Below are positions 4,861 to 34,601 of a stretch of 35,919 nt of DNA, piece after piece. The stretch's first letter is position 1. Every line of letters begins with the position of its first letter. Origin of the DNA: a virus; IMG/VR virus record IMGVR_UViG_3300033148_003177, positions 1 to 35,919 of that record; one strand, 5' to 3'. The translations under genes and the position numbers were made by a program. The notes beneath the pieces were generated by a model that worked only from the letters and a program-made list of their open reading frames with translations, was not told where the DNA came from and searched no databases.

Positions 4861-6743
4861 AATCTTAAATTTCTTTTAATTTTATCTAAGATTAGGTCTC
4901 CCATCTTTTCTGCAGACTCTTCATCTAATAAAGTGTTTCCGGTTATATTAATTGTAATATTTGCACCTATTCCTTTACTTCCTACGGGAATAATAGTCTC
5001 TCCTCCGTGAACAATCGCGGAAACTGGAGCTCCTATTGGACCTGGGACTATTCCTCCTGTAGCAAAACTAAATGGCGTTACTCCAGCTCCAATATCTACT
5101 AATTCTTGTGCGTAACCACCAACATCTTCAATAAACCCTCCTATGCCTTCACCTATACTTACTCCTAAATTAGAAGCCTGACTTGATAAACTACTTATTA
5201 AACCTGTTACTGGAGCTATAAAGTTTTTTATTCTATCAACTAATTCTCCAATTCTACTAGATGCCCATTCTACCTTTTCCACAACCCAATCCCAAGTATC
5301 TGCCCAAACTCTTTTAATTTCATCTATAAATTTTCCAAAGGCAGTAGTTATAATAGCCCAAACTTTTTTCATCGTATCACTAACCATTGTCCATTTACCT
5401 TGAACAAGAGTATTCATTTCCGTAAGCCATCTCATTAAAAATTCCGATAAAGCTTCACTTGCTTCTATAACTGGTTGCCAAATTGGTCTTAAAAATTCTT
5501 TCCAAACAATAAGAATTCCCTTATAGAAATATCCTAATGTCGTAAATATATCTATAACGTTTTGCGCCCAACCTTTTAAAGTTTCAATTATAGTATTGAA
5601 AATTATTATCGCTCTTTCACTAAGCCAATTCCAAACTCCAGTTAAAACTTCTCTAATTTTTTCCCAATTTTTCCAAAGCAATACTCCTACCGCAATTACT
5701 CCAGCAATAACTAATATCCAACCAAACATTGCTATTGACATACCCCCTATAACTACTCCTAAAAATTTAATAGCAATAACTAATGGTTTTACAATAACTA
5801 GAAAAGCCTTTACCATAGTAATTACACCCGTCATTACTGTAGTAACAATAGTCATTGCGGGTGCGAGTGCTACAAAAAACAATACTAATTGTTCTTGAAA
5901 AGGACTAAGTTGTCTAAACCACTCTATTAAATTACTAATACCTAATATCAATCTTGGAACGTGTTCTGTTATTAAAGGAGTTATGGTTCTTATTAATTCG
6001 TTAAATACGGGGTCTAAAACTTCTCCAATCTCTATGGCACTATCGGCCATTACTGCCTTCATTCTAGATACGGCTCCACTTAAACCTCCTGCCGAAACAG
6101 CTACATCTGCATAATTTTCTTCTAACTTTCCTAAGGTGTGATTTAAGACTGCCGTTTTTTCCTCAGTAATAGTTAATTCGCTTGCTTCTTTTCCTAATGT
6201 TATAGCATAATCTTCTTTAGCTTTTACTAAATCAACCGTAATACCCAAATTATCTAATATCATTTTAGACTCTCTGCTCATACCAGTAATCAAACTATCA
6301 AACATATAAGTTACATCCATACCTGTTGCTCTTGCGGCTTTTTTGGACAATTCTGCCATCTTTGTAAATTGGGTTCCGAAATCACTAAAAGATTCTGCTC
6401 CCATCAATGATAAAGCACGAGTTCCACCTCTAAGAATCGTTAATTTATCTAAGGTTCCAGCAGATGCATTGGCAACTCTATTCTCAAATTCTTCTACACC
6501 AAAGCCCATACCCTCTGTCATTGATTGAAACGCATCTTTAACACTGGCATATTTACCGGCACTCTCAGCTAACTTAAACCCTGCTACACCTACTCCAACT
6601 AAGGCTCCTGTAACAATTAAAGAAGCCTTATTAATTTTATCTAAATCTTTTTTGAAAGAATCTAAAGACTTATCAATTCCTTTCATTGAAGCGGATACCT
6701 GGTCTTTAAGTCTTATGATGATATCTAGTGTTGAAGTTGGCAT
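4857..6743 (-). CDS. Tail tape measure protein
   Basis: At 628 residues this is a short tape measure protein; at about 0.15 nm per residue the tail would be near 90-95 nm. The N-terminus has the typical helical start (LDIIIRLKDQVSASMKGIDK) followed by a hydrophobic Gly/Ala segment (SLIVTGALVGVGVAGFKLAE). The conserved tape-measure core follows, with AFQSMTEGMGF, GTRALSLMGAES and MILDNLGITVDL. A central hydrophobic block at about residues 285-355 would insert in the host membrane during DNA entry, and Trp-rich helices come next. A Gly-rich end (FSFATGGIVPGPIGAPVSAI) is also characteristic. It starts inside the gpT stop and sits between chaperone and hub, as expected for siphoviruses. Confidence 0.92.
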   Translation of the reverse strand: MPTSTLDIIIRLKDQVSASMKGIDKSLDSFKKDLDKINKASLIVTGALVGVGVAGFKLAESAGKYASVKDAFQSMTEGMGFGVEEFENRVANASAGTLDKLTILRGGTRALSLMGAESFSDFGTQFTKMAELSKKAARATGMDVTYMFDSLITGMSRESKMILDNLGITVDLVKAKEDYAITLGKEASELTITEEKTAVLNHTLGKLEENYADVAVSAGGLSGAVSRMKAVMADSAIEIGEVLDPVFNELIRTITPLITEHVPRLILGISNLIEWFRQLSPFQEQLVLFFVALAPAMTIVTTVMTGVITMVKAFLVIVKPLVIAIKFLGVVIGGMSIAMFGWILVIAGVIAVGVLLWKNWEKIREVLTGVWNWLSERAIIIFNTIIETLKGWAQNVIDIFTTLGYFYKGILIVWKEFLRPIWQPVIEASEALSEFLMRWLTEMNTLVQGKWTMVSDTMKKVWAIITTAFGKFIDEIKRVWADTWDWVVEKVEWASSRIGELVDRIKNFIAPVTGLISSLSSQASNLGVSIGEGIGGFIEDVGGYAQELVDIGAGVTPFSFATGGIVPGPIGAPVSAIVHGGETIIPVGSKGIGANITINITGNTLLDEESAEKMGDLILDKIKRNLRL

Positions 6744-9616: not shown

Positions 9617-10258
9617 TTAATACGTATTTTTTCTATATTTATTTAATATCTCTTTAGCTTCTTTTAACATTGTAGATTCTCTCGTATTATAACTCATACT
9701 TATTGCTCCTTGACTCATACTTCTTAAATTCTGAGATGTCGATGGTCTTCTCATATTACTTAAAACTATTAAACCTGTAGCTTCTTTAATTCCACTTGGA
9801 ATTGTGTAATATCCTGCCATATAAGAAATTCTCGCATAAGAAAATCTATTCCTAACAGAGAAGAAATTTGAGATTGAAATATTTCCACTTAATTCTATTT
9901 CAGAATAAGGATATCTAATATGTCTTTTAGAGTCTGGGATATCGTATTTTGCATCTCCATTACCATCTATTAAACCTAATTCACTTATAGATGTTCCTAA
10001 TTTTAACTCTATTTTTGAGACCGATACAATTGGAATCTTTTTAGTGAAAATTATTAAATCACCATCTGTACTTGCCTTTGCTTGACAAGTTTCATTTGTA
10101 ATAACTTCTACTTTCAAAGAATAATTTATATACTCATCAATATAATCTGATGCTCTCGTAATCATTCCAGATAATACAATAGTTGAGTGTTTACTAAAAT
10201 CCATATTAGGATTCCAGGCTTTTAACTCGTCAACACTAATGTAATTTGTTTTATTCAT
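9617..10258 (-). CDS. Head-tail adaptor (connector) protein
   Basis: This 213-residue protein shows the usual adaptor design. A short N-terminal segment (NYISVDELKAWNPNMDFSKH) leads into a helix (MITRASDYIDEYINYSL), a central beta insertion (IPIVSVSKIELKLG, then YPYSEIELSG) and a C-terminal helical part (IPSGIKEATGLIVLSNMRRP). In HK97 gp6 or SPP1 gp15, these helices bind the portal ring. The residues near RISYMAGYYTIPSGIKEAT are a frequent signature of this family (xxYxAGYxxxPxxIKxA). The gene overlaps the membrane-protein gene upstream by 8 bases and starts the neck block. Confidence 0.82.
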   Translation of the reverse strand: MNKTNYISVDELKAWNPNMDFSKHSTIVLSGMITRASDYIDEYINYSLKVEVITNETCQAKASTDGDLIIFTKKIPIVSVSKIELKLGTSISELGLIDGNGDAKYDIPDSKRHIRYPYSEIELSGNISISNFFSVRNRFSYARISYMAGYYTIPSGIKEATGLIVLSNMRRPSTSQNLRSMSQGAISMSYNTRESTMLKEAKEILNKYRKNTY

Positions 10259-10499
10259 TTTCTATTAAAATTATAGTGTCTGTTATTTGTATCTCTCCAT
10301 TATCGTTAACTTCATATAAATTAATGTCAATACTCCCTCTTTGTTTTACGACTCTATGAATTTCGTTTTGGACTCTTATAATGGTCGTGTTTTGTTCTTT
10401 CGCTATTCTATTAGTAAACCATTGATTACTAAAATAAATACCTCCTATTGCTAATAAAATTATAAGTACGATTGTTTTTACTAATTCCATTTTATTCAT
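10251..10499 (-). CDS. Small membrane-anchored protein in capsid-neck interval
   Basis: This 82-residue protein has one N-terminal membrane segment (residues ~7-24, VKTIVLIILLAIGGIYFS). A soluble tail follows with a Gln/Arg-rich helix (NTTIIRVQNEIHRVVKQRG) and a short beta hairpin (DINLYEVN, IQITDTIILIENE). I do not recognise the family. It follows two genes with signal peptides and precedes the adaptor gene with an 8-base overlap, so all three exported or membrane proteins are expressed with the capsid genes. It could anchor or process the secreted neighbours, or act in the cell envelope at the end of infection. There is no cleavage-type Ala-x-Ala after the segment, so it likely stays anchored. 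Confidence 0.6.
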   Translation of the reverse strand: MNKMELVKTIVLIILLAIGGIYFSNQWFTNRIAKEQNTTIIRVQNEIHRVVKQRGSIDINLYEVNDNGEIQITDTIILIENE

Positions 10500-10516
10500 T
10501 TTTTTTTAATTAATTA

Positions 10517-12082
10517 TTAATCGAATATTATTATCATATGATATACTGCTTCTGGAACACTAGTATCTATAGTAAACCATCTTGATATTGTCCAATCTCC
10601 ATAAGTATTACCCCCATTCGGGTCTATGCCTCTTACTTTCCAATAATAAGTATCTGTAACTAAAGCGTCCCCAACTTGAACGGTGAACGATACTAATTGT
10701 CCAGATGTAAATGGGTCTGTATTGTCTGGGTCTCCAGCAAAACCACTATCTGTTCCTGAAACCTTGTCAAGTAAATCACCTGTATCAAAAGTATCAGCTG
10801 TGTCTATTTGTATATTATATCTAATATCATCACCATTTCCGTCTGTCCCAGTAAACTCTAATGTTGGAGTTGTGTCTACTCCAAATGCTGTTTCATCTGC
10901 TGTATTAAGCTCTACCGTTGGAGCTACCGGTTCAGCTGATTCTTTAAATTCTACCATTAAACCTATCCAAGAAGCAGAACTGTCTTGACTTCCAGAACCT
11001 TTAGAAAAACCAACTTCATAACTATCTAAGACTGTTGTGGTAAAACTTCCTCCTCCTGGTCTTAAATCTCTAGCTTCTACAAATTTAGAAACAAAACCTG
11101 TTGCTAAAGCAAAACTAGTATCATAATTAGTAGAATTATCTCTTTCTCTTATATAATGGTCTGTTCCTGGTCCAGTACCTCTATTTCTTCTTCCTAATGC
11201 CATAACAGAATAAATATCACCAGTAATATCTGTCGCTGATGTAGGTTGCATTGCAAATGATATTCCTACTGCATCAGATGTAGTATAACTAGCATAATCT
11301 GCATCGCTAATAGGAACCTCATCACAATCTGTATAAGCACCTGCGTCTAAAGCGTCTCCTGTTCCTGCTCCATTTGGAAGTAACATTTCAACTGATGTTC
11401 CTCCTGGGTATCCATCTCTATCAATAACTATATCGTCTATATACCAGACACCTGTTTCTCCTGCGTGAGCAGTAGCATTTCCAAAATACACTCCGTCAAA
11501 ATAAGTACTGCCTAAAGCTAAAGTATCTAAACCACTTCCAGTCAACTCTACATCTCCATCTATTTTAGCCTCAATTATTCCAACCGTATCGCTAAGAACA
11601 ACCTTAATTTCAATATAGTGCCAAGCATCTTCTGTTAATGCGTTTGTAGAAGTTTCATTAAAATCTGATGGTTGGTCGCTATTTATTCGTATATGTCTAT
11701 CTGTTGTTAAGTATAAATCAACCACATTAACGTTTCCATCATCTTCGACTATACCTATCTTACTTTCTAAACTTGGAGCAGAGTCAACATAAAGCCAAAA
11801 CTGAATATAAATAGTAGCATCTTCAACAAAAATACCAGTAGTTATTCCAATATAAGGAAGTCGTTGAGTAGCAGGAGAATCAATTTTTAAAGAATAATCT
11901 CCTGTTCTTACTATTGTCTGGTCGTAAATTGGAGTAGTTCCAAGAACACCTTGAAATTCTAATACACTTCCTGATTCTGCTCCGTTTAACCATCTTCTTT
12001 CAGTAGCAGAAGTTGTCAAAGGAAATAATCCTAGTAGAATTACTATCAAAAAGAAATTTAAAATTTTAGCTTTAATCTGCAT
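10517..12082 (-). CDS. Secreted LamG/FnIII-like protein in the virion operon
   Basis: This 521-residue protein has a clear signal peptide: MQIKAK basic end, hydrophobic core ILNFFLIVILLGLFPLT, and a type I site TSA|T after residue 26. The mature part begins with a concanavalin/LamG-like jellyroll (about residues 30-225) carrying RTGDYSLKIDSPATQ, ATIYIQFWLYVDSAP, DAWHYIEIKVVLSD and VWYIDDIVIDRDG. A second beta domain follows (to ~385), and the C-terminal ~120 residues look like fibronectin type III (YNIQIDTADTF, TYYWKVRGIDPNG). Such domains bind carbohydrate or proteins. The gene overlaps the upstream fibre gene by 11 bases. An exported glycan-binding protein in a capsid operon is unusual: it may be a virion decoration loaded after export, or a surface protein altering the infected cell. 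Confidence 0.72.
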   Translation of the reverse strand: MQIKAKILNFFLIVILLGLFPLTTSATERRWLNGAESGSVLEFQGVLGTTPIYDQTIVRTGDYSLKIDSPATQRLPYIGITTGIFVEDATIYIQFWLYVDSAPSLESKIGIVEDDGNVNVVDLYLTTDRHIRINSDQPSDFNETSTNALTEDAWHYIEIKVVLSDTVGIIEAKIDGDVELTGSGLDTLALGSTYFDGVYFGNATAHAGETGVWYIDDIVIDRDGYPGGTSVEMLLPNGAGTGDALDAGAYTDCDEVPISDADYASYTTSDAVGISFAMQPTSATDITGDIYSVMALGRRNRGTGPGTDHYIRERDNSTNYDTSFALATGFVSKFVEARDLRPGGGSFTTTVLDSYEVGFSKGSGSQDSSASWIGLMVEFKESAEPVAPTVELNTADETAFGVDTTPTLEFTGTDGNGDDIRYNIQIDTADTFDTGDLLDKVSGTDSGFAGDPDNTDPFTSGQLVSFTVQVGDALVTDTYYWKVRGIDPNGGNTYGDWTISRWFTIDTSVPEAVYHMIIIFD

Positions 12083-15000
12083 CGATAGTATAAGTTATGC
12101 AATAATTGACGAAATTAACCTCTCCAGTGTTCGTTCCGAAATCACACTCAAATCTTTCATTAGCTGTAAATGAAGCATTTGTAATTGAGCCATCGTCGGC
12201 TGTTCCAGCTGTACCACAAACTATCTCTTCAAAATAATTAGTTCCATCTCCACAAGTAACTGCATAACTTGTTCCTCCTTCTGCTCTACAATAAATATCT
12301 GTAACTGTAATAGCGTGTTTTGGAGACCATAAAGGAATATCATCATATACATCTGCCGTTGTAGAAGCAACCGTGAAACATTTTTCAGTTTCGTAAGTTA
12401 AAACTCTTTCAGAAGCTCCATAGTATAAGAATTGGTCTGAGGTAGTGTCTATTCCTATTTCTCCTGCACTATCTATGGTTGGGTCTCCTTGTGGAATTGC
12501 TAACGAGCTCGTAAATATGAAATCATCTCCTTCGTCTAATTCTGAAGCTGAAATGCTATTTGCGGGAACTGTAACTGCTGTTGTAAAGGTTGGAGAGTCT
12601 ATAGGAGCATATACGGATGCTAATGCTGTTCCTCCTATTGTAATATCATTGGTTACTTCTAAATCAGTAAACCAACCTTTTAATACTCTATTAGTAGTAT
12701 CCGCTAAAGAGCCAGTCATTGTAATATCGTTTGCTCCTAGTATTAACGTTCCAGAGCTTGTTATTGAACCAACCCCTAATGTTCCTATTCCTGCTAAATT
12801 AAGAGTTGCGCTTGTTCTATTTATGTCTACAGCCGTAGTTCCAATATAAAATGTTTGGTCTATAAGAGCATAAGTTCCAAAGTCTGAAATATCTGCTTCC
12901 ACCAATTGATGCCATACATTAGTTCCAGGGTCATCGTCCCACATTAAAAATCTATCAGCATTAGGGTCAACTGCAACATCGCTTAAATCAAATAAACTTT
13001 CACCAGTAATATCTGTTAAATAAGTTCCCAAATCGCTTATATCTGCTTCTACTAATGCTCTACTTTCCCAACTATCCCCATCTGCCATTAAAGCGTTTTT
13101 ATCTGTAGGAGTCGTTACTCCAACATCTGATAAGTCTGATAATTGAGTTGCTCCGGCTCCTCCTTCAGCTTCACATTGAATAGCTGATGCTGTAGCATTC
13201 CAAGTACAATATTTAGTGTCTGTAGTGGTTGCAGTCTTAGTTAATGTTGCATCTGTTACCCAAGATTGAAGTTCGGAAAATGTATTTATGTCTTCATCTT
13301 GCATATAATTTGTCAGGGCAGAAGTAGTAATAAATGCACTTGTAGAATTATTATAATTTGATAAGTCGGTATCTACTTCTATGGTAGTGTTAGAAAGTAT
13401 TGCTGAACTCCCTCCTGTAATTGTAAGAACCGTAGAAGTCGCTTCTGTTAAATTTCCCTTATTTATATTAATATCAAAATTATCTGCTGGGTCTTCTACA
13501 ATACTAAAAGTAGTTCCGTCAAAATCAAATATAGGAGCTATTGCCGTCTGAGACACTCCATCAACTTCAAATCCTGCAAAAGTATCTGAACTAGCTTTAT
13601 TATTAAAAGTATCCCAATCTGTATCTGATAAATAACCACTGGTATCCGTATCTGCCTGGGATATACTAACAACATTAGCTGTAATATCTAAAGGACTTGT
13701 TGCACTTGTAATTCTATTAGTATAAGCTGTTTCAAAATTAGTTTCTTGAGTTCCTGTTATTAAAACTAAACCACCTCCGTCTGTAAAATTATCTATTCCA
13801 AAAATAGGAGTTGCTCCACTAATAACGCTCTGGTCAATATAAGTATGGCTTGCTCCAGATTCTCCTATGTGAGTATAAGCTGAATCATAATTACTTTTAA
13901 GGGTAGTGTCTAAATCTGCTTTTAAGCCACTTGCGTCAATGCTTAAATCTATGGTGGTACTATTCTGCGTTAATACATCGGCAGTAATATCATAGGTAGT
14001 AAGAGTTAAATTTATACTATTTGTATCACTAATTGTAGTACTTTCTGTTATCTTGTCGTTAAAAGTATCCCAATCAGTAGTACTTAAATATCCACTATTT
14101 GTAGTGTCTGCAGGTTGGGTTGCAATAGTATGTTGGGCAGAGGTTAAATGATAATATTCATCTGCTATTCCACCTTGCAATGTTCCTAATTCATTATGGT
14201 CTGCTACGGCTGTTCCACTAAAATACTTATCTGTAACCATTTGAATAGTAGTAAAAGAACCTCCGGCTTGAGGAGCAACAATTTTTCCAATCAAAACACC
14301 AAATTCAGTTAATTGGTCTGGTCTTGTTGGCTCTCCTTCTTCTTCTGCTTCTGCTAAAGAGTAAGAACCTCTACCATAAACAACATAAACATCTTCATCA
14401 TCTATGTGCTTATAAACCCAATGAGTTCCGTATTTTGCTACTCCTACAGTTCCCAACGTTCCATCTCCATCATCGTAATGTTCGTAATCTATTACGTTTA
14501 ATGGCGTTCCTTCTGTCCAACCACTACCACTATCTTGATATACTGGAATAAAAGTTGTTGTTGCTGAATCGTATGAATTAGGAATAAACATATTTATTCC
14601 ACCGAAAACAATACCTGAGGTCATTGTAAAATTATTAGTTCCAGAATAAGCTATAGTGCTTCCACTACTTAATTCTAGATTTCTTAAAGTTACTGCTCTA
14701 GTATGTAATTTTTGAACTCCATCTTGAAAATCGTAACCACCGGAAATATAATGAACGTTCCCAAAGGTATCTTTCATTACCTTGCCAATAGGAATATTGG
14801 TTTTGGCTAAAGCGTAAGGGTTTGTTTCTGAAAGAGTTATTGTAGGACTTCCTGAGTTATAATTTAAAGATATACTTGTAGCTGTAATAGTCTGATTATC
14901 TTGTTCTGTTAATATTGCATATTTAAGTGGAGCCGTAACACTATCTGTGGTTCTAAATAAAGCCGTTAAAGCGGCAACTTTAAATGTCCCTGCGTTTGTT

Positions 15001-16646
15001 CCTTCTGTAATAACACCTCCGGTCATAATTCCAGGGCTATCAGCGTAAGCATTATCTCTACCTAATTCACTTAAAGCTGTTTCAATTTCTGTTCCTACAA
15101 AATAATCTGTTGTATCGGTAATAGGAATATCTAATGCTGAAACTTGGTTAGCTCCTGTTCCCCAATCAATAAAAGTATCATTTATGCTATCTGTTTTAAT
15201 ATCTGCTGTTATATCATAAGTAGAAAGAGTAAAATCAATTCTATCACTATCAGAAATTGTTGTGCTTTCAGTAACTTTATTATTAAATAAGTTCCAATCT
15301 GTAGAGTTTAAATAACCATCTGTACTTGTATCTGCTTGAGTAATTGAAGCTGTGTTACTACTAAAAGCTAAAGGAGATGTCCAAGAAGTAACTCTAGTTA
15401 AACCTACTTCTGCTAAAACACTTTCTAGTTCTGTTCCTGTAAAATAACCAGCACTATCATAAATCTTAATACCTTCTGCATTAAAATTAACAGACTTATC
15501 AAAAAGCATTACTCCTAACCATAACTCCTCTCCAGCAGTATAAGTTCCGGGGTCGGTATTAATATCGCGAACAAGACCAAAAGTAGTAATATAACCAGTT
15601 GCATTATCGGCTATATCGTGAGTCGCTATACCTATTGTCGTGTGAGAAGTATTGTAAGTATCTGCTTTAGCCAATGAAATTACAGGTCTATTTCCTATGG
15701 CCGTACTAACATAAACAACTTGACCATTATTTATTTGACTTTCTGTTTTATTAGTAGCTCTAATATGTTGCTCTTGACCAACCTGTAAAACAACATCGCC
15801 GTTTTCAGTTCCTACGTTCAAAGTTTTATCATCTTCACTCCACCAAATACGACCTTCTTGAGTTGCTACCGTAGATGTCGTATTAAAATCAAAATAATCT
15901 ACATTAATAATTTCGTTATTATTTAAATCTAATCTATCAGTTAAATTTAATCCTGTAAATTCGGGAGTACTACTCGTACTAATACCTTGAATAGTGTCTA
16001 ATTCTGTACTTGTTATTTTTAAATTATTAACATTAAAATCAATACTTGCTGTTTGAGATGAATATTGTAATCCGTCTCCCCAAGTATCTACTCTCTTAGA
16101 ATAAGAATCGTCCCAATTAGTATTTGTTAATCCTGAAAGAAGACCTGTATCACTTATTATTCCTAAACTATTTTGGATTAATTTACCTGTAGTTTCGTCA
16201 AACCTGACAATAGCATTATCTGTTGAAGTAGCCGAACCTACTACATCTCCTGCTCCAGAAGGACTATCCCATATAGGTGCTACCGATACTCCACTCGATT
16301 TTAAATATGTTCCGTCGGCTCCTAAAGCTAATTCGGTTACATCTCCACTAGCATCTGAGTAAAATAATCTCCAAGCGGTTTGGTCTACGAACTCTGTTAA
16401 ATTAGTATATCCGGCTCCCGCAGTCCCACAAGAAAATAATCCGTCTGAATCTGTTTTAAGACTATCACAACTACTTAAAGAGCCTATTTTAAAATCCCAA
16501 GTATTATTAATTAAACCAATAACATCGGCTCGTCTTGTAAAAAAGTTTAAAGGAATAATATTAGCAAAGACCTGTAATGGTATTAAGGCTATTACTAATC
16601 CTATAAATATCTTCGTTATAAAATTTTTTATTTTTAATATCTCCAT
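12072..16646 (-). CDS. Giant fibre-like protein with signal peptide
   Basis: At 1524 residues this is the largest protein in the window. It has an N-terminal signal peptide (hydrophobic core IFIGLVIALIPL, type I site VFA|N after residue 28). The body is Thr/Ser/Asp-rich and looks like a beta-structured fibre. A shaft pattern (NAIVRFDETTGKLIQNS, FTGLNLTDRLDLNNNEIINV) and three copies of a GYLxxTDWxxFNxK motif are visible. A longer ESTTISDxxxIxxTLxTYDI segment follows two of the copies. Cysteines occur in local pairs (SSCDSLKTDSDGLFSCG; YCTWNATASAIQCE) with six more in the last ~110 residues. This would fit disulfide bonding in an oxidising compartment. It overlaps the repeat protein gene by 13 bases. 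It may be a head/neck fibre or an exported surface protein. Confidence 0.75.
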   Translation of the reverse strand: MEILKIKNFITKIFIGLVIALIPLQVFANIIPLNFFTRRADVIGLINNTWDFKIGSLSSCDSLKTDSDGLFSCGTAGAGYTNLTEFVDQTAWRLFYSDASGDVTELALGADGTYLKSSGVSVAPIWDSPSGAGDVVGSATSTDNAIVRFDETTGKLIQNSLGIISDTGLLSGLTNTNWDDSYSKRVDTWGDGLQYSSQTASIDFNVNNLKITSTELDTIQGISTSSTPEFTGLNLTDRLDLNNNEIINVDYFDFNTTSTVATQEGRIWWSEDDKTLNVGTENGDVVLQVGQEQHIRATNKTESQINNGQVVYVSTAIGNRPVISLAKADTYNTSHTTIGIATHDIADNATGYITTFGLVRDINTDPGTYTAGEELWLGVMLFDKSVNFNAEGIKIYDSAGYFTGTELESVLAEVGLTRVTSWTSPLAFSSNTASITQADTSTDGYLNSTDWNLFNNKVTESTTISDSDRIDFTLSTYDITADIKTDSINDTFIDWGTGANQVSALDIPITDTTDYFVGTEIETALSELGRDNAYADSPGIMTGGVITEGTNAGTFKVAALTALFRTTDSVTAPLKYAILTEQDNQTITATSISLNYNSGSPTITLSETNPYALAKTNIPIGKVMKDTFGNVHYISGGYDFQDGVQKLHTRAVTLRNLELSSGSTIAYSGTNNFTMTSGIVFGGINMFIPNSYDSATTTFIPVYQDSGSGWTEGTPLNVIDYEHYDDGDGTLGTVGVAKYGTHWVYKHIDDEDVYVVYGRGSYSLAEAEEEGEPTRPDQLTEFGVLIGKIVAPQAGGSFTTIQMVTDKYFSGTAVADHNELGTLQGGIADEYYHLTSAQHTIATQPADTTNSGYLSTTDWDTFNDKITESTTISDTNSINLTLTTYDITADVLTQNSTTIDLSIDASGLKADLDTTLKSNYDSAYTHIGESGASHTYIDQSVISGATPIFGIDNFTDGGGLVLITGTQETNFETAYTNRITSATSPLDITANVVSISQADTDTSGYLSDTDWDTFNNKASSDTFAGFEVDGVSQTAIAPIFDFDGTTFSIVEDPADNFDININKGNLTEATSTVLTITGGSSAILSNTTIEVDTDLSNYNNSTSAFITTSALTNYMQDEDINTFSELQSWVTDATLTKTATTTDTKYCTWNATASAIQCEAEGGAGATQLSDLSDVGVTTPTDKNALMADGDSWESRALVEADISDLGTYLTDITGESLFDLSDVAVDPNADRFLMWDDDPGTNVWHQLVEADISDFGTYALIDQTFYIGTTAVDINRTSATLNLAGIGTLGVGSITSSGTLILGANDITMTGSLADTTNRVLKGWFTDLEVTNDITIGGTALASVYAPIDSPTFTTAVTVPANSISASELDEGDDFIFTSSLAIPQGDPTIDSAGEIGIDTTSDQFLYYGASERVLTYETEKCFTVASTTADVYDDIPLWSPKHAITVTDIYCRAEGGTSYAVTCGDGTNYFEEIVCGTAGTADDGSITNASFTANERFECDFGTNTGEVNFVNYCITYTIDAD
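13595..15345 (-). repeat. Three GYL-TDW-FNxK repeats inside the giant fibre gene
   Basis: Three in-frame copies lie near 15275-15345, 14050-14115 and 13595-13660. They encode DGYLNSTDWNLFNNK, SGYLSTTDWDTFNDK and SGYLSDTDWDTFNNK. The first two are each followed by ESTTISD and a TLxTYDITAD strand. The motif is a recurring element of long trimeric phage fibres as far as I know the family. DNA identity between copies is partial, pointing to old duplication rather than recent expansion. Confidence 0.7.
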
Positions 16647-17680: not shown

Positions 17681-18694
17681 CTATACGGCTAATCCGCCTA
17701 TCTTATACCAGTATGGCTCTGCTATACGTTTCAAAACTGTCGCTTCTGCAATAAATGCTGTCTTAGCAAATGCAGTGTTAGGAACATCTAACTTAATCAG
17801 TGGAATCAAATCTTCCATCTCAACGTGATTCTCTCCCGCAGGAGATTTCATTGCACCTAGAACTGCCCAACTACCCATATATCTAGAAGTAACAATCTTA
17901 ATTGTCTGTCCTGTTACTGGAGAAACAATTTCAGTCACTCTTAGATTTGCCCTTGCGGCACCTTGGTCACTTACGACAATCCTATTAATTGAACCACTAG
18001 CTTGTAACTCGTCAGACAAAGCTCTTGTCTGTCTTGCTCCAATAAATAAATGGTCACAAACACCTCCAGCTTCAAATACAGTCTGGTCGTAAACACCTAT
18101 ACCAGATGCAGTCAAAAGAGATGCTGAACCACTATTTGTAGTAATTTGTTTTAATAAACCGTCAAAAGCGTTGGAATCAGCGGCACTATCACCATTGATG
18201 ATTAAGTATTCCTCACCCAACATCGTTTCTAGAGTTTTAATCCTAATTAACTGTTCTTCTGCAGGCACATGGTTTTTAGATGCGGCAATCTGTAATAAAC
18301 CAACTGAAACTTTTCTACCTAACAACTTATAAGCGGCAGTTGCTACGCTGTAGGTTTGAGTTGTTTCATTAGGAGTTCCGGCATCTGCAAATGTGATAAC
18401 TGAACCACTACCAGTTGCACTTGGGTCCAATTTAGAAGTTAATTTCTTCCAAGCCGTAGCTTGTCCACTTCCAGCTTTTCTGGGCATAATGCTTCGAATA
18501 GGTGTAGCAGTAGGAATTATTAACTTAATAATTGGGTCAAGGTTTTCTGCGACGAAGATAGAACGGCTTGAAGGACTAAATGAATATGTTCCAGTTGTAA
18601 CAGCCGCTTTTTGCAAAGCTTGTGCTAATAACTCTAACGTATTCTCTTCGCCCAACATACCTTTTAACAAGTTCATATCAATGTTCTTATTCAT
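17681..18694 (-). CDS. Major capsid protein, HK97 fold
   Basis: This 337-residue protein directly follows the protease/scaffold gene. It begins with a helical N-arm (MNLLKGMLGEENTLELLAQA), then a typical capsid sequence: PIIKLIIPTATPIRSIMPRK (the start of the E-loop/P-domain), a long helix with LETMLGEEYLIINGDSA, and AFDGLLKQITTNSG. The A-domain has a VTSRYMGSWAVLGAM stretch and the end LIPLIKLDVPNTAFAKTAFI is typical of the last strands. The pattern GxxYLIINGD with FDGLL is common in HK97-fold major capsid proteins. The ATG follows a 48-bp gap that carries the AAAGTCGA motif 26 nt upstream and no Shine-Dalgarno sequence, which is odd for what should be the most abundant protein. Confidence 0.88.
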   Translation of the reverse strand: MNKNIDMNLLKGMLGEENTLELLAQALQKAAVTTGTYSFSPSSRSIFVAENLDPIIKLIIPTATPIRSIMPRKAGSGQATAWKKLTSKLDPSATGSGSVITFADAGTPNETTQTYSVATAAYKLLGRKVSVGLLQIAASKNHVPAEEQLIRIKTLETMLGEEYLIINGDSAADSNAFDGLLKQITTNSGSASLLTASGIGVYDQTVFEAGGVCDHLFIGARQTRALSDELQASGSINRIVVSDQGAARANLRVTEIVSPVTGQTIKIVTSRYMGSWAVLGAMKSPAGENHVEMEDLIPLIKLDVPNTAFAKTAFIAEATVLKRIAEPYWYKIGGLAV

Positions 18695-23053: not shown

Positions 23054-23271
23054 TTTTTTCTTTTTTCACATATTCTTGATACGCCATCCGACCCTTTAAC
23101 TAGCATTCTATTTGCTGGTAATTTGCTTATAATCTTTCTATCATTAGTATCAAAGGTTAAAGTGTAAAAGACTCCATCGTGTTCGCACCCTAAAGGTTTT
23201 CCCCTATTGTCGTAATGAATTTTTAGGCTAAAATCAAAGGGTTTTCCACAATAAGAGCAGATGTTCTTCAT
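23050..23271 (-). CDS. Small cysteine-containing protein, putative zinc finger
   Basis: This 73-residue protein starts with a CxxC zinc knuckle (NICSYCGKPFDFSL) and has further Cys/His residues in GCEHDGVFYTL and a single Cys near the end (SRICEKRKK). The spacing could bind one zinc ion. It is basic overall. No family was recognised. It overlaps the glycosyltransferase gene upstream (ATGA) and the zinc-ribbon gene downstream, so the pair probably forms one translational unit at the end of the sugar block. Confidence 0.55.
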   Translation of the reverse strand: MKNICSYCGKPFDFSLKIHYDNRGKPLGCEHDGVFYTLTFDTNDRKIISKLPANRMLVKGSDGVSRICEKRKK

Positions 23272-24800
23272 TTAAACTTCTTTATAAACTTTGACAATAA
23301 TCCTTCCTTCTCTTCAAAATGAATACAATGCTTATGTTTAATCTTACAGACAGGACAAATATCATTTCTTCCTAATTTAGTAAAATCCGTTTCTTCTTCT
23401 ATCTGTGCTAACTTCCTATCGTTAAGAGCTTCTTTATAAGCACTTTCAAATAACATTATCCACTTTTTACCAATTAAATCTCCGTCCCAATGTAATTCTG
23501 AAACCCACCTAAAACCATTATCTACCATTATCTTAACTTTATCTTTATGTTCCATTACCCACTCCATCTTATCTGCTAAATCGTTAACATCGCAAGTAGG
23601 TCTTATTCTATTATTATCATTTGCTAACACTACGAAGTTATTCACATTTTTTCCACTTTTAACTAATAACCCTCTTTCGTTATTTCCTATAATCTCATTC
23701 ATTGCCGTATTGCCTGCCATGATAACCGGCTTCTTAACCGACATCCCTTCAACTACGGATAACCCAAAGCCTTCTCCTAATGAAGACGAGAATACGCAAT
23801 CAACCGCATTATAAAGTTTATTTACGGTCTCTATTGGGTATCCATGATTTACCGCAAACATCTGAGCGTTTGGTAATGCCCACTCATCTCCTACTACAAA
23901 CTTTAATTGTTTAGATATCTCTATTAAATCTAACCCAGACTCATCTTTATACAAGCAATGAAAATAAAAATACACATCTTCTTTTCCTTTTGCTCTTCTC
24001 CTATCTAATAATACTTTACACGCTTTCATACTAGTAATTAAATCCTTTCTAGGTTGATTTCGATTCATATTCATAAAAACAAATTTTTCTGAACTTCCTC
24101 CAAATAAATTCTTTCTTAATTCTTCTCTTTCTCCTTCTTTAAAAGGAATTGGAAAGAAGTCTTTTTGATTAATTCCGTGATAAATAACGTTTAATTTAGA
24201 TTTCAATAATTCATATTTCTTCTTATTCGTTTCTTTTTGTTTATCGTCCAATAAACTATCTTCGTCTGTCTGATAAATCTTTAGACACTCTTCGTAAGCA
24301 TATTTAGTATAGGCGACAGGGTAATCTATTAATAAAACCGTCTTATCAACCCAATCATATGTTGGAGTAGCATCTATAGGAAAATAATAAATAGTTTTAA
24401 ACTTCTTATCAGCTGGTAATGATAAATTTGTTTCTACTATCTTAGGAATTAAACTCGTCAAAACAAAAGTGTCTTGTAATATCCACACTAAGTCATACAC
24501 TCCTTCTCCTAACTTATCTAAAAATGCTTGTCTTCCAAACAAATCCTGATAAAGAGGATTAGGAATTAAATTACTAGATGCTGGATATATCTTATAAGGA
24601 TACTTCTCTCTATCATAGAATTGTCCATCAAAATTAATCCCAATAACATCTATATCATACTTCTCTGTATTATGTAAAACTTTTAGAATATTTTTAGATA
24701 CTTGAGCAAATCCTGTTGCGCACGTTGGAGTATCCGCTAATACTAATACTCTAACTTTCTTACTCTCCTTGTTTTGTATATTTGATTGTTTTGTTTTCAT
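23268..24800 (-). CDS. GT-B glycosyltransferase (GT4-like) with SEC-C-like zinc tail
   Basis: This 510-residue glycosyltransferase should transfer a sugar from a nucleotide donor with a retaining mechanism. The N-terminal Rossmann half starts VRVLVLADTPTCATGFAQVS. The donor half has FMNMNRNQPRKDLITSMKA and the EX7E motif in SLGEGFGLSVVEGM (around residue 341). The last ~40 residues add a short metal-binding tail with GRNDICPVC (Cys482, Cys485) and HCIH (Cys492, His494), resembling a SEC-C motif but with CxxC in place of CxC. That tail is not part of the GT fold. The start overlaps the upstream GT2 gene by 41 bases; no better in-frame start follows before the Rossmann strand, so the upstream ATG is kept. 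Confidence 0.85.
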   Translation of the reverse strand: MKTKQSNIQNKESKKVRVLVLADTPTCATGFAQVSKNILKVLHNTEKYDIDVIGINFDGQFYDREKYPYKIYPASSNLIPNPLYQDLFGRQAFLDKLGEGVYDLVWILQDTFVLTSLIPKIVETNLSLPADKKFKTIYYFPIDATPTYDWVDKTVLLIDYPVAYTKYAYEECLKIYQTDEDSLLDDKQKETNKKKYELLKSKLNVIYHGINQKDFFPIPFKEGEREELRKNLFGGSSEKFVFMNMNRNQPRKDLITSMKACKVLLDRRRAKGKEDVYFYFHCLYKDESGLDLIEISKQLKFVVGDEWALPNAQMFAVNHGYPIETVNKLYNAVDCVFSSSLGEGFGLSVVEGMSVKKPVIMAGNTAMNEIIGNNERGLLVKSGKNVNNFVVLANDNNRIRPTCDVNDLADKMEWVMEHKDKVKIMVDNGFRWVSELHWDGDLIGKKWIMLFESAYKEALNDRKLAQIEEETDFTKLGRNDICPVCKIKHKHCIHFEEKEGLLSKFIKKFK

Positions 24801-25563
24801 CGTTAAAGGGTTTATTATATATTTCTTTTCCTGGGAACCCTCCCCACTTCTTCACAAAATAAGCCTTAGAGTCTGCGAATTGTTCTGGTTTAGTAAATCC
24901 TCCTGGGTGCCCATCTTGTGTTTGAGTTTTAGAAGCAAAATGATAGAACATCGACATCGGACAACATAATGCTACTAATCCTGCCTTTTGTATTCTGTAA
25001 TGCATATCGTTATCTTCGTAATATGCTGGGAAGAACCCTTCATCAAAATAACCTACTTTCTCTATTAACTTTCTATTAATCATAAATGAAGAGAAGTTTG
25101 GATGAGGACTTTCCTCTAATCCTTGTTTATCGTTATCTCCTTTATCAAATATTTCTGTAGGCACTCCACACTCCATCCTTAAATCTAAACTAGAAACTAA
25201 AACCGTTGTCTCGTCCTTCTTATCTAACCTCTCAGCTAACACTTTAATTGCGTTTTTATGAAATAACACATCGTTATTAGCAATCAAGATATAATCATAT
25301 CCCTCTTTAAACCCTAAATCTATTGCGTTATTCCACGCTCTCTGAACTCCTACATTATCATTATACCTTGTGACTATAAAATCCTCTCTCTCACTCGCTA
25401 ACTTATTTGACTCAACTTCTGTTGGGTCTGTAGAACCATTGTCTACTAATAAAACTTTTAATTCAATTCCCTCAAGGTTTTGATTAAAAAGAGTTTCTAT
25501 GGCTTGTTTCGTATAACTGTGCCATATATTAACCGCAGTTACTACTGCTAAAACTTTAATCAT
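24760..25563 (-). CDS. GT2-family glycosyltransferase
   Basis: This 267-residue GT-A-fold enzyme is of the GT2 type. The nucleotide-binding start reads VLLVDNGSTDPTEVES (DNGS at residues 41-44). NVGVQRAWNNAIDLG follows, and a metal-binding NND at residues 96-98 stands in place of DxD. FDEGFFPAYYEDNDMHYRIQ contains the acidic catalytic region (ED). Such enzymes resemble rhamnosyl- or N-acetylglucosaminyl-transferases of O-antigen/capsule clusters. The gene overlaps its nucleotidyltransferase neighbour by 4 bases. It is probably inverting, adding one residue of the glycan; donor and acceptor cannot be read from the sequence. Confidence 0.88.
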   Translation of the reverse strand: MIKVLAVVTAVNIWHSYTKQAIETLFNQNLEGIELKVLLVDNGSTDPTEVESNKLASEREDFIVTRYNDNVGVQRAWNNAIDLGFKEGYDYILIANNDVLFHKNAIKVLAERLDKKDETTVLVSSLDLRMECGVPTEIFDKGDNDKQGLEESPHPNFSSFMINRKLIEKVGYFDEGFFPAYYEDNDMHYRIQKAGLVALCCPMSMFYHFASKTQTQDGHPGGFTKPEQFADSKAYFVKKWGGFPGKEIYNKPFNDENKTIKYTKQGE

Positions 25564-26009
25564 TTTTTAATACTATTATAATTTTCTATTAATTTATCTA
25601 TAAGCCAACTCGATGATTGACTTTTACCTCCACCAACAGCAAAACGCATCTCAATACCTAATTCTTCACAAATTGCCTTCTCAGGAATATTTCCTAAGGT
25701 CCTATCTCCACCTTTTGCAAAGATATCAGGTTTGATTGAACCAAGACTTTTAATTACTGTTTGGTCTTTATCTATACATTTTACGACTTTATCAATGTAT
25801 TTCATTGCTTCTAAAACACTTTTTCTTTCATTAAAATCCATAAAGGCATAACCTTTTTTAGACTTTAGAAAGTCATCTGAATTCAAAATACATACCACTC
25901 TTCCATTTTTGCCTGCTAAATGCCTAGCTCCCTTAAAATACTCTACGTGACCCGAATGTACTGGGTCAAAACCTCCACTTATAACTACAATTTTTCTATC
26001 TTCATTCAT
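25560..26009 (-). CDS. Nucleotidyltransferase, HldE-C/RfaE-like
   Basis: This 149-residue protein has the HxGH cytidylyltransferase fold. GGFDPVHSGH lies at residues 12-21 (His18, His21), and IFAKGGDRTLGN at about residues 97-108 resembles the conserved region of sugar-phosphate adenylyl/cytidylyltransferases such as the HldE C-terminal domain. The end contains SSSWLIDKL, equivalent to the phosphate-binding ISS motif. Reaction expected: sugar- or alditol-phosphate plus NTP gives an activated NDP-sugar. Substrate is unclear (heptose-1-phosphate, glycerol-3-phosphate or similar). It overlaps the methyltransferase gene by 4 bases. It would supply the activated donor used by adjacent transferases. 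Confidence 0.88.
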   Translation of the reverse strand: MNEDRKIVVISGGFDPVHSGHVEYFKGARHLAGKNGRVVCILNSDDFLKSKKGYAFMDFNERKSVLEAMKYIDKVVKCIDKDQTVIKSLGSIKPDIFAKGGDRTLGNIPEKAICEELGIEMRFAVGGGKSQSSSWLIDKLIENYNSIKK

Positions 26010-26560
26010 CTTTTTATTCCTATTATGTAAACGTATTCAAGACCATCATTGTTATTGTAAAACGCTTTAACTTCGACTATTTTAAACGCTTTACGAACTA
26101 GGTCTATTCCTTGTTTAACACTTAATAATCTTCTACCAGTATCTCTATCCTTTCCATATCTTGGAAAATAAAGTCCTGGAGCTCCAAATAATAATAAACC
26201 TCCTTTTTGTAATATCTTCCTTATATTATCAAGAGCATCTCTAATCAATCCTTCATTGTCAAACGTATAAACGCCTTCTGCTCCTATATCACTCTTAATC
26301 TGTTCAAATACTCCATTAAATATAACTCCATCAAAAGAATTAGGGTCAAATGTTGTATCTGTAATATCGTCAATGATATCCGCTCCGGAGTTCGGATTAA
26401 TATCTGAAACTATAAAATGTGAATCTGGAAAAAATGGTTTATAGTTCCAAGAAGTTGATTTGCCTATATCTAAAACCTTAGGCTCTACTACTTTTAAACT
26501 ATTCTCGAAACCAGGTATAAGTTCGTTATTAAGATATTGTCGCCATCTACTTAGACTCAT
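26006..26560 (-). CDS. SAM-dependent methyltransferase-like protein
   Basis: This 184-residue protein has a class I methyltransferase layout. A degenerate motif I (PKVLDIGKSTSWNYKPFF), an acidic strand end (FIVSDINPNSGADIIDDI), motif-IV-like DGVIFNGVFEQI and a ILQKGGLLLFGAPG strand follow in order. Motif I lacks the usual Gly-rich GxGxG, so SAM binding may be altered. It ends with VEVKAFYNNNDGLEYVYIIG. Methylation of a sugar or of the glycan end is likely from the cluster. It overlaps both neighbours by a few bases and its start lies within the end of the CgeB-like gene. Confidence 0.72.
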   Translation of the reverse strand: MSLSRWRQYLNNELIPGFENSLKVVEPKVLDIGKSTSWNYKPFFPDSHFIVSDINPNSGADIIDDITDTTFDPNSFDGVIFNGVFEQIKSDIGAEGVYTFDNEGLIRDALDNIRKILQKGGLLLFGAPGLYFPRYGKDRDTGRRLLSVKQGIDLVRKAFKIVEVKAFYNNNDGLEYVYIIGIKR

Positions 26561-27530
26561 AAATTTCTTTATATAAATATGTTATATGATTCTTTCGACC
26601 TGCAAGAATCTCTATTAAGTCACCACACCTGTTTTTCCAAGTATGATGTTCCTGAACAAATTCAAATGCTTCCTGTTGCATATTTTCCCTTGCCAAAGGT
26701 TGCTCTATCCACTCTTTATATAACTCTACGGCTTCTTGAGGAGTATCAAAGAACATTGCGTGTTTCTTATTTCTTAAAATCTTATCTAATCCTTTGGCTC
26801 TATGAGCTAAACAAAACCCTCCTGCTCCAGTTATTATAAAAGGCCTATCAGAAGCAAATTGTTTTATATGACTAACAAAATCATAACTTAAAGATATACT
26901 CGCTGAAGCGTATATCGGAACATTAATACTTCTTGTTCTATCTCCGTATGCTGTTGGAGAAGAAAACACTTTAATTGGTAATTTATTATCTACTAATGCT
27001 GTTACGCAATCTATTCTTCCTGGATACCTCCCTGGGTTCATTGTTCCTATAAATACAAAAGGATTATAATATCTAGGCTTAACCTTAGGTCTTTCTTTAA
27101 GAATATAACTAGCATAAGGCATTACTATGCATTTCTCTCTATCTATATTCCACTTCTTTGCGTGTTGGTTTAATTGATGGTCTTGATTAAAAGCAATTAA
27201 ATCTACCCAACCTAAATCTACACTTACTCTTTCCGATACATCTTTATAATCCCCCTCTTGATATATAAATTTAAAACCTAATTCCTTTTTTAAATTAGAC
27301 ATCATCTCTACAACCTTTCCTATGTCGTGTTGATTTCCATCTATTAAACATTGACAAAAAATTATATCGGGTTTTATTTTACGTATCTCGTGCTCTACTA
27401 AACTAAGAGTATTGTTTACCAATTCTACACCGTAGAACTCGTGTCCTAAGGCCCTAAAACCCTCGCTTACACCCTTTGTAATAGTTTTATACGGGCGACT
27501 TATATATTGTCCCAAACCTATAATTTTCAT
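26547..27530 (-). CDS. CgeB-like glycosyltransferase
   Basis: This 327-residue protein looks like a GT-B enzyme of the CgeB/Glyco_trans_1_2 type. The N-terminus MKIIGLGQYISRPYKTITKG precedes an IRKIKPDIIFCQCLIDGNQH strand pair, and the linker region reads RYYNPFVFIGTMNPGRYPGR. The C-terminal part carries RPFIITGAGGFCLAHRAKGL, ending in MFFDTPQEAVELYKEWIEQP and a helix with ENMQQEAFEFVQEHHTWKNR. That order (FIxTGAGG, FDTPxEAxE, YxxHTWxxR) is characteristic of CgeB-like transferases. The final half is well preserved, so catalysis is plausible. Donor unknown. It is sandwiched between two methyltransferase genes with short overlaps. Confidence 0.8.
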   Translation of the reverse strand: MKIIGLGQYISRPYKTITKGVSEGFRALGHEFYGVELVNNTLSLVEHEIRKIKPDIIFCQCLIDGNQHDIGKVVEMMSNLKKELGFKFIYQEGDYKDVSERVSVDLGWVDLIAFNQDHQLNQHAKKWNIDREKCIVMPYASYILKERPKVKPRYYNPFVFIGTMNPGRYPGRIDCVTALVDNKLPIKVFSSPTAYGDRTRSINVPIYASASISLSYDFVSHIKQFASDRPFIITGAGGFCLAHRAKGLDKILRNKKHAMFFDTPQEAVELYKEWIEQPLARENMQQEAFEFVQEHHTWKNRCGDLIEILAGRKNHITYLYKEIYESK

Positions 27531-28027
27531 TTTATTACTATTAAACGAACATCCCTTTTAGGGTGATGTTGTATATTTTTAACTTCTTTTATCTTAGTAA
27601 ATCCGACCTTCTTTACTAATGCTTTAATTTCCTCTGTTCTCCAGACATATTTATGATAATTAAGAACATAAGGAATTTCTGTTTTTTGTCCTCCGTAAAA
27701 CCCACATCTTGGTTTACTAAAAGGGTCTTTTTTATCACTCTTTAAATATTCTTTAATACATTTATCTAAATCGGTAAACTCTATTTCTATAAAACAACCT
27801 TTCTTTAATACTCTAAACCACTCCTTAAGAACACCCTCTAATTCCCACCTATAAAAACTTTCTAATACATGAACAGCTTGAATTTCTTCTACCGACTTAT
27901 CAGGAAAAGGTAAACTTCTTATATCTCCCACATAACTTACTCCTTTAAAAGGATAAATGTCCATATTAACATAATCCTTTTTAATTTGTTGCCCACACCC
28001 AAGATTTAACCTGATTCTTTTTAACAT
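27527..28027 (-). CDS. SAM-dependent methyltransferase (paralogue 1)
   Basis: This 166-residue class I methyltransferase has a clear motif I, RLNLGCGQQIKKDYVNMDI (residues ~6-24). SYVGDIRSLPFPDKSVEEIQ follows, then HVLESFYRWELEGVLKEWFR and VLKKGCFIEIEFTDLDK. This is the pattern of the predicted methyltransferases found in polysaccharide clusters (the 'GCGxxxxxGYxNxD' group). It overlaps its paralogue at 28021-28557 by 7 bases and the CgeB-like gene by 4. The two are similar in organisation and probably arose by duplication; they may methylate different sugar positions. Confidence 0.85.
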   Translation of the reverse strand: MLKRIRLNLGCGQQIKKDYVNMDIYPFKGVSYVGDIRSLPFPDKSVEEIQAVHVLESFYRWELEGVLKEWFRVLKKGCFIEIEFTDLDKCIKEYLKSDKKDPFSKPRCGFYGGQKTEIPYVLNYHKYVWRTEEIKALVKKVGFTKIKEVKNIQHHPKRDVRLIVIK

Positions 28028-28557
28028 TTTATTGCTTTACCTATTAATTTATAAGGCTCTTTCCACTCTTCGTATGCTTTCATCGAATAACCAAATTCAA
28101 CACTTTTAAATCCATATTTTTCTAATAATAGGCTTAAGTATTGCTCGTTAAATAAATTTTTATGCTTTCTAGCATTAACTTCATCTTTATTATTTAAATA
28201 ATGAGTATTCTTTTGTCCATTAACATTGTTCCATAAATATGTTAAATCAGTTCTATCTGCTTCTTGCCAATAATGTTCTCCTAACATTAAAGCACATTTA
28301 ATTCCATTGGGTAACCCAAATTCAAACACTCCATTTGTTTTTAATATTCTAGCTATTTCCCTTATAACCTCAGTAACCTGTTTAGGAGTAAAATGTTCTA
28401 AGAACTCTGAACAACTAACCTCATCAATAGAATCTGTCTCGAAAGGAAGTCCTTTTAATATATCGGCAACCACATCGGGTTTAACACTTTCCCTGATATC
28501 TACATTTATGTATCCCTCTAAAGGATAGCTACCACAACCTAAATTAACTTTTTTCAT
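28021..28557 (-). CDS. SAM-dependent methyltransferase (paralogue 2)
   Basis: This 178-residue class I methyltransferase has motif I VNLGCGSYPLEGYINVDIRE, then DVVADILKGLPFETDSIDEV, EFLEHFTPKQVTEVIREIAR and ILKTNGVFEFGLPNG, in the usual order. An inserted region (residues ~105-145, KCALMLGEHYWQEADRTDLT and a His-rich stretch) distinguishes it from paralogue 1. The C-terminus is KYGFKSVEFGYSMKAYEEW. The start overlaps the GT4 gene by 4 bases. Expected substrate is a sugar or glycan hydroxyl in the shared pathway. Confidence 0.85.
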   Translation of the reverse strand: MKKVNLGCGSYPLEGYINVDIRESVKPDVVADILKGLPFETDSIDEVSCSEFLEHFTPKQVTEVIREIARILKTNGVFEFGLPNGIKCALMLGEHYWQEADRTDLTYLWNNVNGQKNTHYLNNKDEVNARKHKNLFNEQYLSLLLEKYGFKSVEFGYSMKAYEEWKEPYKLIGKAIKC

Positions 28558-29429
28558 AATCGTTTAATAAAATGCTTAGTAATATCTTTTGACTCCTTGT
28601 ATACCTCTATCCACATTTTTCTATATCTTTTAGCTATTTGTTTCCAGGTCCACTTTTCTTTTATTATTAAATCTGGCAAAAATTGTTTTATTCCATCTTT
28701 AATATCTTCTATTGTCTTATCTATAATAACCACTCCGGGTAAATCATTTACATTACCTACATCGGTGCAAATTACTTGTTTACCACAAGCTAATGCTTCT
28801 AATACTACATTACTACTTCCTTCGTCGTCTGATGCTAATATAAGAACATCTATCATATTATAAAAATTAACCATTTCTCTATGAGTCTTATATTCTTCAG
28901 GATGATTACTTCCATCGTTAAGTAATTCAACATATTTATCTAATTGTTGACAGGCTTTTTCTATCAAATCATATCCTTTAGCTCTTGTTCTTGTTCCAGC
29001 AAAACCTATAACTAACTTTCCTCTCCTTCTCGATTTAAATAATTTTATATCTACTCCATTAGGAATATAAACACAATTATCAAAACATCCTGCTAATTTT
29101 TTATTTAACGCGACTACTTTAGCAGACCTTTCAAAGATAAACTCTAAATCATCTCTATCTTGAAATAACCCTGAAACGGCTCCGTGACTATTTAAACTAG
29201 TTGTCATTGTATTAGGGAATTGTTCAAACCAATACTTGTAACTTGCTATTCCTCCACAACAGAAATGAACAATATCATATCTCTTATAATAATGATTTAA
29301 ATTAGAGGGATTAACCTCTCCCATATCTTTAATCGTAAAATGCCAATCGGGAATATATTTAACAATTGCTTTGGCTCTATTGTGAACCGACCAATTATTC
29401 TTTTCGTCTACTATTAATAATATCTTCAT
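28554..29429 (-). CDS. GT4-family glycosyltransferase
   Basis: This 291-residue GT-B enzyme is shorter than typical GT4 proteins (350-400). It begins MKILLIVDEKNNWSVHNRAK. The linker is VYIPNGVDIKLF and the donor half starts KLVIGFAGTRTRAKGYDLIE; the EX7E motif is in SDDEGSSNVVLEAL. The N-terminal half is compact (DIVHFCCGGIASYKYWFEQF). It is clearly paralogous to the gene at 30304-31161, which shares the MKILLVTID/NDWAV start and order of motifs, with the radical-SAM gene between them. The 44-bp gap upstream is one of the larger gaps in this block; an AGG lies about 9 nt before the ATG. Confidence 0.88.
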   Translation of the reverse strand: MKILLIVDEKNNWSVHNRAKAIVKYIPDWHFTIKDMGEVNPSNLNHYYKRYDIVHFCCGGIASYKYWFEQFPNTMTTSLNSHGAVSGLFQDRDDLEFIFERSAKVVALNKKLAGCFDNCVYIPNGVDIKLFKSRRRGKLVIGFAGTRTRAKGYDLIEKACQQLDKYVELLNDGSNHPEEYKTHREMVNFYNMIDVLILASDDEGSSNVVLEALACGKQVICTDVGNVNDLPGVVIIDKTIEDIKDGIKQFLPDLIIKEKWTWKQIAKRYRKMWIEVYKESKDITKHFIKRL

Positions 29430-29473
29430 TTTATCAACCTATACATTTTTTAATAATTTTAAGCGTAAGGAAA

Positions 29474-31631: not shown

Positions 31632-31632
31632 T

Positions 31633-32868: not shown

Positions 32869-32872
32869 ATTT

Positions 32873-33067: not shown

Positions 33068-33068
33068 G

Positions 33069-34346: not shown

Positions 34347-34348
34347 AT

Positions 34349-34582: not shown

Positions 34583-34601
34583 TGTATTGTTTTAAATTAA
34601 T

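What the first reader, a model, noticed from the sequence alone, without database searches (positions are those of the whole stretch)
10251..16646. Signal-peptide proteins inside the capsid operon
Between the capsid-linked repeat protein and the head-tail adaptor lie three successive genes with N-terminal export or membrane segments: a 1524-residue fibre (site VFA|N), a LamG/FnIII-like protein (site TSA|T) and an 82-residue anchored protein. They overlap neighbours by 8-13 bases or lie 17 bases apart, so they are co-expressed with virion genes. Virion proteins normally assemble in the cytoplasm. In the fibre, cysteines come in local pairs, as expected for disulfides formed outside the cytoplasm. 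Hypotheses: virion fibres that are exported and attached at the membrane or after lysis, or a phage-encoded surface layer on infected cells for adhesion or exclusion of rivals. This is the best candidate for an undescribed system here.
Basis: partly seen in the sequence, partly recalled or inferred. Interest (0 to 1): 0.66.

Follow-up and report, generated by a model that had tools for sequence, protein, structure and literature searches.

The report
Phage fibre genes carrying export signals
This uncultured virus puts bacterial export signals on the fibre genes in its capsid operon, as at least twelve other viruses in the public collection do, which suggests that some virus fibres mature outside the cytoplasm rather than inside it as textbooks assume.

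Summary
Three consecutive genes in the head operon, fibre (12072-16646), lectin-like protein (10517-12082) and 82-aa protein (10251-10499), start with signal-peptide or anchor segments. No other head or tail gene does at its N-terminus. The fibre has no alternative start codon in its first 50 codons, so the segment is translated if the gene is. It is not a quirk of one contig. A scan that did not ask for hydrophobicity found eight distinct viral fibres with a signal peptide placed 4-8 residues before the ordinary fibre N-terminus (NPFTxxxDY). L048 is a ninth; L045, L046 and L047 are signal-peptide fibres without the motif. Where context is available they sit in head modules with at least three capsid lineages, usually just downstream of the same small partner gene that accompanies signal-less fibres. 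Signal-peptide fibres are richer in paired cysteines (1.43 vs 0.28 Cys per 100 aa); six are enriched in N-glycosylation sequons. The window's closest relatives carry a signal-less fibre, or none, at this position. Best reading: an exported version of a known phage fibre cassette, cleaved so that the normal docking N-terminus is regenerated. Whether it then joins virions or stays on the cell surface is undecided. SignalP and proteomics were unavailable.

The parts
12072..16646 (-). 1524-aa fibre with N-terminal signal peptide
   Evidence: ORF; only one possible start codon in 50 codons; segments up to 70% identical to signal-less phage fibres; 69% identity over 39 aa (residues 81-119) to the signal-peptide fibre of L068
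16563..16646 (-). signal peptide of the fibre, residues 1-28, predicted cut VFA|N
   Evidence: MEILKIKNFITKIFIGLVIALIPLQVFA|N; rule-based call
16512..16556 (-). degenerate NPFTxxxDY-like segment IPLNFFTRRADVIGL just after the cleavage site
   Evidence: second-best of 10,939 positions in the window proteome, shuffle p 0.009, but score 1.5 against 26-45 in clear members
15519..15773 (-). Phage_cement_2-like domain in the fibre, residues 292-376
   Evidence: PF09956, E 3.9e-5, 24.4 bits against cut-off 24
12099..12380 (-). C-terminal six-cysteine domain of the fibre (Cys 1423-1516)
   Evidence: cysteine positions; low-confidence all-beta model, pLDDT 55
10517..12082 (-). 521-aa protein with signal peptide (residues 1-26, TSA|T), probably lectin-like
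   Evidence: weak phrog_2448 match; a signal-peptide Laminin_G_3 protein lies two genes after the signal-peptide fibre in L061
10251..10499 (-). 82-aa membrane-anchored protein, one N-terminal TM segment
   Evidence: small anchored genes also lie just before the adaptor or neck gene in L047 and L064
16634..17599 (-). capsid-linked repeat protein, proposed docking partner; its C-terminal domain differs from that of close relatives
   Evidence: homologous to L016-L018 repeat proteins; in L017/L018 the C-terminus is the fibre-partner domain
17681..18694 (-). major capsid protein
   Evidence: PF17236 SU10_MCP, E 1.5e-14
9617..10258 (-). head-tail adaptor
   Evidence: PF05135, phrog_442

Best explanation
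This is a Sec-exported version of an ordinary tailed-phage head/neck fibre cassette. The fibre is made with the other late virion genes, sent across the membrane and cut by signal peptidase. The cut leaves a mature N-terminus at about the place where signal-less fibres begin. Outside the cytoplasm the fibre forms local disulfides and, in the archaeal-like relatives, probably receives N-glycans. The co-exported lectin-like protein and the small anchored protein hold it at, or link it to, the envelope. The mature fibre then docks through its N-terminal segment on the virion partner protein (the repeat protein) during or after lysis. Shown by sequence: signal segments, conserved position, N-terminal motif and partner gene in relatives, cysteine and sequon signatures. 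Inferred: actual export, cleavage, glycosylation, docking and its timing.
For: (a) A scan requiring only MKK-gap-NPFTxxxDY found 10 in-frame proteins; 9 (8 distinct) are signal peptide plus NPFT fibre, and L048 is another. (b) After predicted cleavage 4-9 residues precede the motif, against about 4-6 in signal-less fibres. (c) The gene just upstream belongs to one small-domain family in both classes: L061, L064, L070, L072, L073, L076 and, more weakly, L048, L068, L069 with signal; L003, L012, L017, L018 without. (d) Major head proteins are confirmed in L061, L068, L069, L072 and L073, and a portal-like gene precedes the cassette in L070 and L076. (e) Cys per 100 aa is 1.43 in 13 signal-peptide fibres against 0.28 in 13 others; Mann-Whitney p = 0.0005 on per-protein values of nearly the same sets. 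(f) Sequons exceed expectation in L045, L046, L047, L061, L070 and L072 (z 2.9-6.5) and in no signal-less fibre tested. (g) The next gene is also exported or anchored in 6 of 9 signal-peptide loci against 1 of 10 others, p = 0.02. (h) Relatives with 73% identical MCP carry a signal-less MSYKYNPF fibre after the homologous repeat protein.
Against: The window's own motif is degenerate, and its partner protein has a different C-terminal domain from the common partner family. Capsids assemble in the cytoplasm, so exported fibres would have to meet them late. Some signal-peptide fibres have only one to three cysteines (L064, L069, L073, L076), so disulfides are not universal. The window fibre shows no sequon excess. 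No proteomics exists, and the predictor is a simple rule rather than SignalP.
Confidence: 0.47

Rival explanations
1. The fibre, lectin-like protein and anchored protein are exported and stay on the infected cell. They work as a receptor mask or surface adhesin, giving superinfection exclusion or stopping progeny from sticking to debris, and are not virion parts.
For: The whole trio carries export or anchor segments; the next gene is also exported or anchored in 6 of 9 signal-peptide loci; L061 has signal-peptide fibre, signal-peptide Laminin_G and anchored genes in one row; the window keeps a separate signal-less tail fibre at 1011-2600.
Against: It does not explain why the fibre docking motif and the adjacent partner gene are kept in signal-peptide versions, nor why the genes sit at the site that holds ordinary fibres in close relatives.
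Confidence: 0.33
2. The N-terminal segment is a hydrophobic virion anchor or assembly tag on a cytoplasmic fibre, not a working export signal.
For: Virion proteins of tailed phages normally assemble in the cytoplasm; export was not measured.
Against: Cleavage-site-like residues sit at a constant distance before the motif; cysteine and sequon enrichment follows the segment; the same segment type starts the neighbouring genes.
Confidence: 0.1
3. Genes borrowed from host surface proteins: a cargo of host adhesins in the late operon with no virion function.
For: The signal-peptide loci resemble cellular exported proteins in composition; the site is variable between relatives.
Against: The window fibre shares long segments with phage fibres, up to 70% identity, carries a phage cement domain, and its relatives have the phage fibre N-terminus and partner gene.
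Confidence: 0.08

Closest known systems
Signal-less NPFT fibre cassettes (partner gene plus fibre) of tailed phages, e.g. L012, L017/L018 and the prophage locus L102
   Same: Same genomic site, same N-terminal motif in the relatives, same partner gene just upstream
   Different: No signal peptide, few unpaired cysteines, neighbours mostly not exported
Head fibres and spikes of RcGTA and capsid-first binding of haloarchaeal virus HFTV1 (PMC7296036, PMC9973310)
   Same: Fibres or spikes linked to the head that bind the cell surface
   Different: No sequence link was tested; the passages read do not mention signal peptides
Surface-displayed bacterial DGR proteins against phage DGR fibres (PMC6199706)
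   Same: That study reports signal peptides or TM regions on bacterial surface-displayed DGR proteins
   Different: It reports that phage DGR proteins lack them and takes this as support for phage origin; the fibres here break that rule
Phage-encoded receptor-masking lipoproteins such as T5 Llp (own knowledge, not tested)
   Same: Phage protein exported to the host surface
   Different: Llp is a small early lipoprotein; these are large late-operon fibres

Membership tests
NPFT fibre cassette of tailed phages | NPFTxxxDY-type motif close to the mature N-terminus | tested here: inconclusive
   Window NFFTRRADV scores far below members (1.5 against 26-45) yet second of 10,939 positions; clear in nine signal-peptide relatives
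NPFT fibre cassette of tailed phages | small partner-domain gene directly upstream | tested here: not met
   The window repeat protein shares its conserved central region with L017/L018 but has another C-terminal domain
NPFT fibre cassette of tailed phages | location in the head-tail gene block | tested here: met
   Between MCP/repeat protein and head-tail adaptor
Phage fibre | sequence segments shared with known or virion-type fibres | tested here: met
   tblastn to annotated phage tail fibres and up to 70% identity to L002
Sec-exported protein | n-, h- and c-region of a signal peptide at the only start | tested here: met
   Rule-based; not tested with SignalP
Sec-exported protein | cleavage and presence outside the cytoplasm | not testable with these tools
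   Needs proteomics or fusions
Phage cement protein (PF09956) | small capsid decoration protein | tested here: not met
   Only an 85-residue domain inside a 1524-aa fibre, at the cut-off score
LamG lectin | significant Laminin_G/concanavalin profile match | tested here: not met
   No Pfam match for the window protein; met in L061

The most novel reading that the evidence does not exclude
A widespread group of tailed viruses of bacteria and archaea secretes its head fibres through the host Sec pathway, lets them mature outside (disulfides, N-glycans), and attaches them to particles only at or after lysis.
Probability: 0.4. Interest if true: 0.82.

Novelty: new variant of a known kind. Interest (0 to 1): 0.62.

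Why it matters
Tailed-virus particles are thought to be built wholly in the cytoplasm, and lack of a signal peptide has been cited as support for phage origin (PMC6199706). Recurrent signal peptides placed directly before phage fibre N-termini would mean that some fibres mature outside the cell. That would open phage fibres to disulfides and glycosylation, or reveal a late surface-display strategy. It is directly testable by virion proteomics.

Tried and rejected
A Cys-motif scan (CDxLxTDxxGxxxCG) in viral and genome collections gave only chance matches. The lectin-like protein had no confirmed relative in viral contigs, annotated phages or PDB, and no BLAST similarity to the LamG-like proteins of L061 or L012. 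AlphaFold models without alignment were too poor for fold search. The partner-domain profile was sought in five phyla: a prophage with a signal-less fibre turned up in one (L099/L102), a short motif protein in an archaeal-phylum contig (L101), a non-fibre context in L098, and nothing in the other two. The signal-peptide NPFT pattern had no match in 395 genomes of one phylum, so hosts stay unknown. Literature searches of the open library found no description of this; subscription papers are not covered. Considered and rejected: start-codon misannotation of the window fibre.

Full report
WHAT WAS CHECKED. The window is a whole IMG/VR virus record of 35,919 bases. On the minus strand it reads portal, MuF-like protein, prohead protease, SU10-type major capsid protein, repeat protein, fibre, lectin-like protein, 82-aa protein, head-tail adaptor, tail genes and an amidase. 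All three begin with a positive n-region and a long hydrophobic core, and two have good signal-peptidase sites. The fibre has no other start codon in its first 50 codons. The rule used.9% of shuffled proteins, and the clustering of three adjacent calls has p about 0.014. SignalP was not available.

THE SITE IS A VARIABLE FIBRE SLOT. Contigs with 73% identical capsid protein carry a related repeat protein followed, where the contig continues (L017, L018), by a fibre gene that starts MSYKYNPFxKGxDYYE, without signal. Contigs with 68% and 50% identical capsid protein (L019, L020) have no fibre there: the adaptor follows. So the slot after the capsid gene takes different fibre cassettes, and in this virus it took one with export signals.

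THE SAME THING RECURS. Signal-peptide fibres were found in head modules of other virus contigs: L045 (followed by another signal-peptide gene), L046 (followed by one with a lectin-like look), L047 and L048. In L048 the signal is followed at once by QYNPYTTSYDF, the N-terminal motif of ordinary fibres. A scan of 2.9 million viral contigs for MKK, a gap of 22-32 codons and NPFTxxxDY, with no demand on the gap, returned ten in-frame proteins, nine of them (eight distinct) signal-peptide fibres. The MKK start does favour signal peptides, so this count is not a frequency. Contexts include MCP, partner gene, signal-peptide fibre, adaptor (L073) and portal, MuF-like gene, partner, signal-peptide fibre, protease, MCP (L072). 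L061 has partner, signal-peptide fibre, signal-peptide gene and signal-peptide Laminin_G protein, close to the window arrangement. Capsid families differ between them.

THE FIBRE IS AN ORDINARY FIBRE WITH A SIGNAL IN FRONT. Signal-less fibres in other contigs start with the same motif. The small gene just upstream is homologous in both classes. Predicted cleavage leaves 4-9 residues before the motif, close to the signal-less start. The window fibre itself has only a degenerate form of the motif, but its residues 81-119 are 69% identical to the signal-peptide NPFT fibre of L068, and other segments match signal-less fibres at up to 70%.

SIGNS OF LIFE OUTSIDE THE CYTOPLASM. Thirteen signal-peptide fibres hold 134 cysteines in 9,359 aa, 113 of them with a neighbour within 25 residues (75 expected). 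Thirteen signal-less fibres hold 30 in 10,847 aa. In the window fibre nine of ten cysteines are close neighbours, p = 0.0007. N-x-S/T sequons are in clear excess in six signal-peptide fibres (z 2.9 to 6.5), in no signal-less fibre, and not in the remaining genes of the five contigs tested. The window fibre shows no sequon excess, so glycosylation is not proposed for it. An amidase-type lysin in the window suggests a bacterial host; the sequon-rich relatives look archaeal, which is inference.

MECHANISM. The most economical reading is export by Sec, cleavage that restores the usual fibre N-terminus, folding with disulfides outside, and later docking on the virion partner. The retained motif and the retained partner gene in relatives favour a virion role. 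The co-exported lectin-like and anchored genes leave surface display as a serious rival. No experiment separates them here.

STATUS. Shown: sequence features, recurrence, gene pairing, composition contrasts. Inferred: export, processing, docking, host. Not found in the open literature searched, which is a limited library.

Noticed in passing
window 23268-35918: A 12-kb island of glycosyltransferase-, methyltransferase-, cytidylyltransferase- and radical-SAM-like genes upstream of the portal; no terminase recognised in the window. Labels are from reading the sequences, not from profile searches.
   Followed up: no
window, all genes: Almost no Shine-Dalgarno-like motif upstream of starts (2 of 42).
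   Followed up: partly
L045 6026-7219, L046 2740-3744, L057 12164-13240, L059 12636-13664: A similar glycosyltransferase-like gene lies shortly after the capsid and decoration genes in four related viruses.
   Followed up: no
L004 10537-17847: A 2437-aa protein with N-terminal membrane helices and a very large sequon excess (91 against 42) directly downstream of a signal-less fibre.
   Followed up: partly
L057 20545-21039: N-terminally anchored exported-type protein in the head-tail interval, resembling archaeal exported proteins.
   Followed up: no
L101 (reverse strand) 4972-5148: A 58-aa protein with the NPFT motif and no fibre, in a contig of an archaeal-phylum genome.
   Followed up: no
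L069 1127-1492: The fibre partner protein itself carries a signal peptide, next to a signal-peptide fibre.
   Followed up: partly
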